Below are positions 3,241 through 59,348 of a stretch of DNA of 64,000 nucleotides, piece after piece (within the stretch, counting starts at the first letter, position 1; every line of letters begins with the position of its first letter). The notes under the pieces were generated by a model. That model made no database searches. It was not told the DNA's origin and worked only from the letters and a program-made list of their open reading frames with translations. The stretch comes from Desulfomicrobium macestii (GTDB lineage Bacteria; Desulfobacterota; Desulfovibrionia; Desulfovibrionales; Desulfomicrobiaceae), in the NCBI RefSeq assembly GCF_014873765.1, contig NZ_JADBGG010000018.1, positions 1-64,000 of the forward strand. The letters are read 5' to 3'. Made by a program: the position numbers and the translations under genes.

Positions 3241-3502
3241 GCGGCCCGGTGCCGTCATGGCCTTGCGGCCCGCCGGAACTCCTTCTCCGGCCTCGTAGAG
3301 TTGAATCGTTGCGTGCCGGACGGAAATCGAGGGCGCTCACAGGCAACGATTCAACAAACGATGCCTGGATCAGTCAGACAGCCGACGGGCCCCAAGACCA
3401 TGACAGCCCCGGGCTTTGTGGCGTCGATGGGGTACGATTTTGATTTTAAGGATTGGTTTGACGGTGTTTCGCTGAGAGTTTGGAAGAGTTTTTTTGCGGG
3501 AA
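3241..3502. repeat. structured repeat, copy 1 of a tandem pair
   Basis: This is the first 262-base unit of a head-to-tail pair, with about 15 differences from copy 2. It contains an inner perfect inverted repeat, GTTGAATCGTTGC (3300-3312) and GCAACGATTCAAC (3343-3355). An outer inverted repeat (3254-3272 with 3386-3404) pairs at 17 of 19 positions. An A/T-rich tail of about 90 bases ends in a T-run. The unit has no credible coding potential. A third relative is at 18144-18309. Confidence 0.85.
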
Positions 3503-3764
3503 GCGGCCCGGTGCCGCCATGGCCTTGGGGCCCGCCGGAACTCCTTCTCCGGCTTCGTAGAGTTGAATCGTTGCGTGCCGGACGGACAATCGAGGCCGCT
3601 CACAGGCAACGTTTCAACAAACGATGCCTGGTTCAGTCAGACAGCCGACGGACCCCAAGACCATGACGGCCCCGGGCCTTGTGGCGGCGATGGGGTAAGA
3701 TTTTGATTTTAAGGATTGGTTTGAGGGTGTTTTGCTGAGAGTTTGGAAGAGTTTTTTGCGGCAA
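3503..3764. repeat. structured repeat, copy 2 of a tandem pair
   Basis: This second unit keeps the inner arms (3562-3574 with 3606-3618, one mismatch) and the outer arms (3516-3534 with 3649-3667, 16 of 19 paired). Together the two units fill the gap between the convergent YeeE/YedE pair and glpX. An IS element is unlikely because there is no transposase and no obvious target duplication. Confidence 0.85.
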
Positions 3765-3773
3765 GTACAGAAA

Positions 3774-3813
3774 TGAAAAAAGCGCCTCCGGCCGGGTTTC
3801 GGCTGGAGGCGCT
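3774..3813 (-). terminator. terminator after glpX
   Basis: AGCGCCTCCGGCC (3781-3793) pairs with GGCTGGAGGCGCT (3801-3813) around a 7-base loop. On the minus strand the stem is followed by TTTTTC, so it ends the rpiB-tkt-glpX transcript. Confidence 0.85.
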
Positions 3814-3836
3814 TGATGTTTTGTGAGCGTGCGAGT

Positions 3837-4817
3837 CTAGTACTTGATGGACGAAAAACGCATCAGTTTGTCCCACTGGTGGGTAGAGGTGATGCGGCGG
3901 ATGGTGCCGGTCTTCCCGCGCAGGACCAGAGAGTGCGTGGTAGCTCCCGTGCCGGTGTAGGAAACGCCGCCCAGGAACGTGCCGCCCGAAATGCCCGTGG
4001 CCGCGAAGAAGACGTTGTCGTCGCGGATGAGCGTGTCCGTGGTCAGCACCTGGTTCAGGTCCAGTCCGAATTCGAGCACGTTCTTGCGTTCGGATTCGGA
4101 CTGGGGATCGAATTGGGCCAGGATCTCTCCGCCAAGAGCCTTGATGGCGCAGGCCGCCAAAACTCCTTCGGGAGTGCCGCCGGTGCCGAACATCATGTCC
4201 ACGTTGGATGATGGATCGACGGCCATGAGCGCCCCGGCCACGTCACCGTCGGTGTGCAGCTGGATGCGCGCCCCGGCGGTGCGGATCTGGGCGATGAGGT
4301 CTTTGTGGCGGGGTTTGTCCAGAACGAAGATGACCAGATCCTCGACCTTTTTGCCAAGGGCCCTGGCCGTGGCCTCAAGATTGTGGGCCACGGGGGCGTT
4401 CATGTCGACCACGCCCTTGGCCGGAGCCGGAACCACAAGCTTCTTCATGTAATAGCTCGGGCCCGGATTGAACATGGTTCCGGCTGGAGCCAGTCCGACC
4501 ACGGCAATGGCGTTGGGCCGTCCGTAGGCCAGCAGATTGGTGCCCTCGACAGGATCGACAGCCACGTCCACGGCCGCGCCACGGCCCGTGCCGATGTGCT
4601 CGCCGTTGTAGAGCATGGGAGCTTCGTCCTTCTCTCCCTCGCCGATGACGATGCGGCCATCGATATCCAGGGTGTTGAAGGACAGCCGCATGGCGTCCAC
4701 GGCAGCTCCGTCGCCCTCGTTCTTGGCGCCCTTGCCGAGCCAACGGGCCGAGGCCAGAGCCGCGGCTTCAGTGACCCGGACCAGGTCCATGGCCAGATTT
4801 CGTTGCGGGGCTTCCAT
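3837..4817 (-). CDS. glpX: class II fructose-1,6-bisphosphatase
   Basis: GlpX hydrolyses fructose 1,6-bisphosphate to fructose 6-phosphate, the committed gluconeogenic step, in the cytoplasm. The 326-residue length is normal for the family. Signature stretches are IVIGEGEKDEAPML near residue 56, the metal- and phosphate-site motif DPVEGTNLLAYG near residue 87, and GTGGTPEGVLAACAIKALGG near residue 212. The ATG at 4817 lies one base past the tkt stop, so the two are translationally coupled. Position after tkt and rpiB makes a sugar-phosphate set supplying pentose and hexose phosphates. A terminator follows immediately. Confidence 0.95.
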   Translation of the reverse strand: MEAPQRNLAMDLVRVTEAAALASARWLGKGAKNEGDGAAVDAMRLSFNTLDIDGRIVIGEGEKDEAPMLYNGEHIGTGRGAAVDVAVDPVEGTNLLAYGRPNAIAVVGLAPAGTMFNPGPSYYMKKLVVPAPAKGVVDMNAPVAHNLEATARALGKKVEDLVIFVLDKPRHKDLIAQIRTAGARIQLHTDGDVAGALMAVDPSSNVDMMFGTGGTPEGVLAACAIKALGGEILAQFDPQSESERKNVLEFGLDLNQVLTTDTLIRDDNVFFAATGISGGTFLGGVSYTGTGATTHSLVLRGKTGTIRRITSTHQWDKLMRFSSIKY

Positions 4818-18103: not shown

Positions 18104-18143
18104 GGATTTGATGCGTTAACGGATCGAGGAGTGGCGGTCGCGG

Positions 18144-18309
18144 TGCCGGCTCAGCCGGACGGGGGCCTCCGAAACTCCTTCGTGGGCCTCGTAATGCCGA
18201 ATCGTTGCGTGCCGGGTCGGGAAGTCGGGATGAGACGAGCGGCAACGGTTCGGCAAACGATGCCTGACTCAGTCAGACAGTCGGCGCCCCCCGTCCGGCT
18301 GAGCCGGCA
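18144..18309. repeat. structured repeat, diverged third copy
   Basis: The core shares blocks with the tandem copies at 3.2-3.8 kb: AACTCCTTC, CCTCGTA, GAATCGTTGCGTGCCGG, CAAACGATGCCTG and CAGTCAGACAG. The inner arms are GCCGAATCGTTGC (18196-18208) and GCAACGGTTCGGC (18242-18254). The outer arms (18144-18166 with 18286-18309) pair along 23 bases with one extra base, yet their sequence is unrelated to the outer arms of the other copies. The copy lies between convergent radA and rarA and lacks the A/T-rich tail. Confidence 0.82.
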
Positions 18310-18336
18310 ACGCGCGGATCGGGATTTGGCATTCTT

Positions 18337-59318: not shown

Positions 59319-59348
59319 CGTCATTCCCGCGAAGGCGGGAATCCAGGG
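59319..59348. repeat. REP-like palindrome
   Basis: ATTCCCGC (59323-59330) and GCGGGAAT (59335-59342) flank a GAAG loop. The surrounding sequence, CGTCATTCCCGCGAAGG, resembles short dispersed repeats common in many proteobacterial genomes. It lies between convergent genes. Confidence 0.65.

What the first reader, a model, noticed from the sequence alone, without database searches (positions are those of the whole stretch)
3241..3764. Repeat family with paired stems that change sequence together (tandem copies)
Three related elements occur in the window, two in tandem here and one at 18144-18309. Seen: the inner arms read GTTGAATCGTTGC/GCAACGATTCAAC in copy 1 but GCCGAATCGTTGC/GCAACGGTTCGGC in copy 3, so a TT-to-CC change on one side is matched by AA-to-GG on the other. 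The outer arms of copies 1 and 3 are unrelated in sequence, yet each pairs over about 19-23 bases. The core between them is conserved. Selection for folded RNA or DNA, not for sequence, is the simplest reading. It could be an uncharacterised structured RNA, a REP-like element, or a non-autonomous mobile element. I do not recognise it as a known family.
Basis: partly seen in the sequence, partly recalled or inferred. Interest (0 to 1): 0.78.

Follow-up and report, generated by a model that had tools for sequence, protein, structure and literature searches.

The report
Strand-specific folded repeats between genes
This sulfate-reducing bacterium and its relatives carry about fifty copies of a roughly 200-letter noncoding element that folds into the same complex shape although its letters keep changing; the copies sit at the same gene ends in different species and mostly point against DNA replication, and no described RNA or repeat family that I could find matches them.

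Summary
The three window copies belong to a family with about 50 complete copies in this genome, in single sites and tandem arrays. On 126 distinct copies the four-helix core keeps 95.5% of pairs, with changes on both sides at 20 pairs. The folded strand is the reverse of the one read: it carries G·U where the other strand carries A·C and folds better in 83 of 94 copies. There is no Rfam, phage, plasmid or viral match. In the genomes searched, clear matches are confined to Desulfovibrionales, mainly Desulfomicrobium and Desulfonatronum. Two properties are unexpected. Copies occupy orthologous intergenic sites in four species, and the best match is the ortholog in 112 of 128 comparisons. The folded strand runs against the replication fork in 33 of 41 and 31 of 37 arrays of two complete genomes. 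It is not a REP or a currently hopping MITE. Best reading: an anciently dispersed, vertically inherited, selected structured element at gene 3' ends. What it does (RNA insulator, retained relic, or DNA site) is unproven.

The parts
3243..3414 (-). Copy 1, whole element with outer arms 3243-3276 and 3382-3414; covariance-model core 3265-3389
   Evidence: model match 132.6 bits
3506..3678 (-). Copy 2, tandem neighbour 262 nt away, outer arms 3506-3538 and 3645-3678; core 3527-3652
   Evidence: 130.8 bits
18139..18314 (-). Copy 3, outer arms 18139-18172 and 18281-18314; core 18161-18288
   Evidence: 122.2 bits
3300..3355 (-). P3 hairpin of copy 1, arms 3300-3312 and 3343-3355, variable terminal loop
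   Evidence: I4; helix 4
3562..3618 (-). P3 hairpin of copy 2, arms 3562-3574 and 3606-3618, one mismatch
18196..18254 (-). P3 hairpin of copy 3, arms 18196-18208 and 18242-18254
3415..3505 (.). Spacer of the tandem unit (G-poor on the folded strand), repeated at 3679-3764
3780..3814 (-). Terminator-like hairpin with T-run of the upstream minus-strand gene (fructose-bisphosphatase GlpX-like by reading, ORF 3837-4817), conserved in three relatives; the tandem array starts beyond it
   Evidence: (I6)

Best explanation
An ancient family of chromosomal structured elements that was dispersed before these species split and is now inherited vertically. It lies at gene 3' ends, and selection acts at individual loci on one folded strand (shown). 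Inferred mechanism: the element acts as RNA. When RNA polymerase runs past a gene end, or in antisense, head-on to the replication fork, the nascent transcript folds into a long outer stem around a four-helix core with an invariant internal loop. That folded, probably protein-bound RNA limits read-through, R-loop formation or 3' decay at the border of the transcription unit. The fold, the folded strand, the placement, the replication orientation and the vertical inheritance are shown. The RNA-level action and the binding factor are inference.
For: Covariation over 126 copies. G·U 148 versus A·C 33 on the folded strand, with 99 of the 148 at three P1 positions; copies in the reverse replication orientation keep the same asymmetry, 23:1. 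Sense fold more stable in 83 of 94 copies. At orthologous sites the P2 and inner helices are 98.8% identical and the internal loop 94.7%, while the P3 terminal loop is 69.8%. Double changes keep a pair in 75% of cases against 38% in a slid control. Placement: 22 convergent, 20 tandem, 2 divergent gene pairs against a background of 38/99/47. Orientation against the fork in 33/41 and 31/37 arrays although genes are split 189/188 leading/lagging. G-poor flanks on both sides.
Against: There is no promoter signal above shuffles and no conserved leader. Several copies lie beyond an intrinsic-terminator-like hairpin, so routine transcription through them is doubtful. There is no T-run after the outer stem in most copies (present in 7 of 88). 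In 6 of 20 tandem intergenic regions the folded strand is antisense to both neighbours. No expression data were available. Most of the G·U excess sits at few positions.
Confidence: 0.33

Rival explanations
1. Relic of a non-autonomous mobile element spread in the past by a strand-specific (for example HUH/Y1 or RNA-templated) machinery. The present orientation bias is survivorship: copies whose more stable hairpin lay on the lagging-strand template were deleted by replication slippage or excised.
For: About 50 dispersed copies in g1 genomes and patchy counts among relatives, 0 to 72. Sense hairpin is the more stable one and is mostly kept off the lagging-strand template. Core-deleted remnants and truncated array units. 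Y1-DnaA_C transposase genes occur in most high-copy genomes of the genus.
Against: Copies are mostly orthologous and locus-specific across species. No transposase, reverse transcriptase or Y1 locus examined is flanked by the element. RT presence does not track copy number. No target-site duplication or clean insertion border was found. Locus-level conservation of the core suggests selection beyond parasitism.
Confidence: 0.3
2. A DNA-level site, for example a gyrase or nucleoid-protein site or a replication- or segregation-oriented element that works as a single-stranded hairpin or cruciform between converging transcription units.
For: Strong orientation with replication and only weak orientation with genes. 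Location beyond terminators, between convergent genes. In-place inversion of a core.
Against: The core is strand-asymmetric with an invariant internal loop and G·U bias on one strand. Copies in the reverse orientation persist across species. G024 of another family gives only 7 against 4 by GC skew.
Confidence: 0.22
3. A set of small noncoding RNA genes, each copy transcribed from its own promoter and acting in trans, for example as a protein sponge, with tandem arrays giving dosage.
For: Conserved structured core in many copies, tandem arrays, unstructured linkers.
Against: No promoter enrichment and non-conserved leaders between species.
Confidence: 0.1
4. The pairing is maintained mainly by mutation: template switching at quasipalindromes copies one arm onto the other, without selection on structure.
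For: Outer arms change wholesale while staying complementary, also within ortholog pairs.
Against: It does not explain the invariant unpaired internal loop, the retained wobble pairs on one strand, or conservation confined to the core.
Confidence: 0.05

Closest known systems
REP/BIME/REPIN elements (GTAG- or CGTC-tagged repeats, with RAYT transposases)
   Same: Dispersed extragenic palindromes, mostly between convergent or unidirectional genes, with G·T pairs in stems (PMC3733652)
   Different: About 170-200 nt with a multi-helix core instead of 20-40 bp; no conserved GTAG or CGTC tag; head-to-tail tandem arrays; no Y1 locus examined is flanked by it; orthologous in position across species
MITEs and other non-autonomous transposable elements
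   Same: Many dispersed copies with long inverted outer arms
   Different: Outer arms are not shared between loci; no target duplication or clean insertion seen; vertical inheritance
IS200/IS605-type single-strand elements
   Same: Strand-specific hairpins and a relation to replication direction (PMC6006769)
   Different: No linked Y1 gene; the folded strand lies on the leading-strand template in most copies, whereas these elements act on the lagging-strand template
Candidate structured noncoding RNAs of Rfam
   Same: Strong covariation with an invariant internal loop
   Different: No match among 4227 families even at permissive thresholds; about 50 copies per genome is unusual for such RNAs

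Membership tests
REP (GTAG/CGTC) elements | 20-40 bp palindrome with short stem and loop | tested here: not met
   About 170-175 nt element with four helices plus outer stem; definition from PMC3733652
REP (GTAG/CGTC) elements | Conserved GTAG or CGTC tetranucleotide at the stem foot | tested here: not met
   On the folded strand the site reads CTAC (= GTAG on the other strand) in 68, TTAC in 38, GTAC in 19 of 136 copies (11 without the motif); CGTC in 60 of 136
REP (GTAG/CGTC) elements | RAYT gene flanked by the repeats | tested here: not met
   No core within about 1.5 kb in the fetched Y1 loci; only a subset of Y1 genes was inspected
REP (GTAG/CGTC) elements | Location between convergent or unidirectional genes | tested here: met
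   22 convergent, 20 tandem, 2 divergent
MITE | Shared terminal inverted repeats | tested here: not met
   Outer arms differ between loci
MITE | Target-site duplication and insertion polymorphism | tested here: inconclusive
   Two empty sites found (G015 L166, G001 L265) but flanks too diverged to define a border
Structured RNA | Covariation above shuffled and slid controls | tested here: met
   and in-situ ortholog test; a formal phylogenetic test (R-scape) was not run
Structured RNA | Stable transcript of the folded strand | not testable with these tools
   No RNA-seq available
Group II intron or retron-derived element | Linked reverse transcriptase or intron domain V | tested here: not met
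   RT absent from G001, G006 and G015, which hold about 45-56 copies; no Rfam intron hit in the window
Rfam families | Match at or near the gathering score | tested here: not met

The most novel reading that the evidence does not exclude
A new class of cis-acting, replication-oriented structured element: an order-specific RNA or single-strand fold placed at gene ends to guard against head-on transcription-replication conflict, kept at orthologous sites by selection.
Probability: 0.2. Interest if true: 0.88.

Novelty: new variant of a known kind. Interest (0 to 1): 0.62.

Why it matters
It is a large structured noncoding family that I could not find in the RNA library or the searchable literature. 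It has three properties rarely seen together: rapid compensatory sequence turnover, fixed genomic sites across species, and a strong orientation with replication. It makes testable whether structured extragenic repeats do work at the border between transcription and replication or merely survive there.

Tried and rejected
Rfam at gathering and permissive thresholds: nothing. Phage, plasmid and viral collections: nothing. Reverse transcriptase as driver: presence does not track copy number. Y1 transposases: loose co-occurrence in the genus, but not flanked by the element, and the highest-copy genome outside the genus (G024) lacks the DnaA_C type. sigma-70 promoter upstream: not above shuffles. 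Orientation explained by gene direction: rejected, since tandem regions give 14:6 while replication gives 33:8 and 31:6 and genes are 50:50 leading/lagging. G·U bias caused by replication-strand mutation bias: rejected, since reverse-oriented copies keep it. Integron attC: the GTTRRRY/RYYYAAC order is reversed and the arms vary between copies; not pursued further, and no integrase search was run.

Full report
What is there. Folding of copies 1 and 3 gives z-scores of -6.1 and -5.5 against dinucleotide shuffles. A DNA search of the assembly gave 59 matches, and a covariance model built from 26 copies gave 59 matches too, including weaker partial and reverse-strand echoes; about 50 are complete copies. 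Many lie in head-to-tail arrays with periods of about 260-390 nt, and leading units of some arrays are truncated.

Structure. On 126 distinct copies 95.5% of cells pair, 20 pairs show changes on both sides, and the covariation score is 0.436 against 0.170 in shuffles and at most 0.123 when slid. That alignment was fitted to the model, so it leans toward the structure; the sequence-only MAFFT alignment of 26 copies gave the same picture. Unpaired core letters are strongly conserved across genera.

Which strand. On 126 copies the folded strand has 148 G·U and 33 A·C. This excess is concentrated: three P1 positions supply 99 of the 148, and without them it is 49 to 31. The MFE of the whole element is lower for this strand in 83 of 94 copies, by 9.5 kcal/mol on average. 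Copies lying in the minority replication orientation keep the same bias, 23 to 1, so strand mutation bias is not the cause. This does not separate RNA from single-stranded DNA.

Where it sits. Forty-four placed arrays lie in 22 convergent, 20 tandem and 2 divergent gene pairs, against a background of 38, 99 and 47 intergenic regions. Part of that sample was fetched because it held elements, but gene classes were not selected; genes were called by a simple codon-usage ORF caller of my own. Several arrays start beyond a terminator-like hairpin of the upstream gene, counted by eye in at least eight of 22; at the glpX-like locus the hairpin is conserved in four genomes while the leader between hairpin and element is not. 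No promoter signal was found. Flanks on both sides are poor in G (14-18%) on the folded strand.

Replication. In the two complete genomes of the genus, G009 and G015, the strand of the copies switches near 3.45-3.5 Mb and again between about 1.1 and 1.9 Mb. One dnaA homolog lies at 3.446 and 3.507 Mb respectively (a second lies near position 1 kb), and in G009 the GC skew switches at 3.47-3.51 and 1.42-1.48 Mb; similar boundaries were assumed for G015. The folded strand runs against the fork in 33 of 41 arrays (p = 1e-4) and 31 of 37 (p = 4e-5); the two genomes share sites, so these are not independent. Genes are evenly split (189 leading, 188 lagging). Local GC skew in the window's genome and in G001 agrees. 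In G024 of another family it is 7 to 4, inconclusive.

Inheritance. Flank comparison shows elements at orthologous intergenic sites in G000, G001, G009 and G015, usually in the same orientation, with copy number changing. Many of those stretches were fetched because they contain elements, but the contiguous stretches of G015 and G009 give the same answer: by my count of the output, 6 of 7 G000 sites are occupied in G015, and 6 of 6 in G009. The best match of an element in another genome is its ortholog in 112 of 128 cases. At orthologous sites identity is 98.8% in P2 and the inner helix, 94.7% in the internal loop, 92.6% in P1/P3 and 69.8% in the P3 loop. Changes on both sides of a pair keep pairing in 75% of cases against 38% in a slid control. 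One core is inverted in place between G009 and G015. Two candidate empty sites were found, but their flanks are too diverged to read a border.

Distribution. Model searches of about 700 genomes find clear matches only in Desulfovibrionales: 27 of 297 genomes of the order, and none outside it in a phylum-wide draw of 395. Large draws used stricter filters and can miss weak relatives. Some genomes of the genus have none.

What it is. It resembles REP elements in placement, and Di Nocera et al. (PMC3733652) likewise note G·T pairs and convergent or unidirectional placement for REPs. It fails the size and tag criteria, and no Y1 locus examined is flanked by it. The genus also carries Y1 transposases with a Bac_DnaA_C domain, a subclass described by Quentin et al. 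(PMC6006769); nothing links them to this element. Current mobility is unlikely.

How it may work. Three readings remain. First, an RNA fold acting on transcripts that run against the fork past gene ends; this uses the strand, the placement and the replication orientation together, but lacks expression evidence. Second, a mobile relic whose orientation reflects loss of copies with the more stable hairpin on the lagging-strand template; that hairpins are deleted more readily there rests on my own knowledge of the literature. Third, a DNA site. I put them at about 0.33, 0.30 and 0.22. The description itself (structured, strand-specific, vertically kept, replication-oriented) I hold at about 0.9.

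Literature. Seven searches of the held papers found no description of this family; subscription journals are largely missing, so an earlier description cannot be excluded.

Noticed in passing
window 59320-59344 (-); many more in the genome, e.g. L089, L102, L163: A second, unrelated short palindromic repeat (about GGATTCCCGCCTGCGCGGGAATGAC) that is polymorphic between sister species at shared loci; possibly tied to Y1-type transposases.
   Followed up: partly
G000:C3:12299-13159; G009:C1:3517389-3518249; G015:C1:1116095-1116955: Y1_Tnp proteins fused to a Bac_DnaA_C domain, present in most high-copy genomes of the genus and not detected intact in the zero-copy ones (one of which has a fragment).
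   Followed up: partly
L163 7299-7660 versus L168 215-327: In-place inversion of the element core between sister species at one orthologous site, apparently between its inverted outer arms.
   Followed up: partly
L089 (G000:C8:9400-9930), L090 (G000:C1:79190-79640): Arrays in which the leading units keep only the 5' half or the 5' half plus P3, and only the last unit is complete.
   Followed up: no
L091 (G000:C10 near 90420) and L180 near 7900: Remnants in which the core is gone and the two outer arms are fused.
   Followed up: no
L071 (G035:C33:12558): A single copy in another family whose flanks carry a further inverted repeat (GCATTTTTGTTCTCA / TGAGAACAAAAATGC) outside the outer arms.
   Followed up: no
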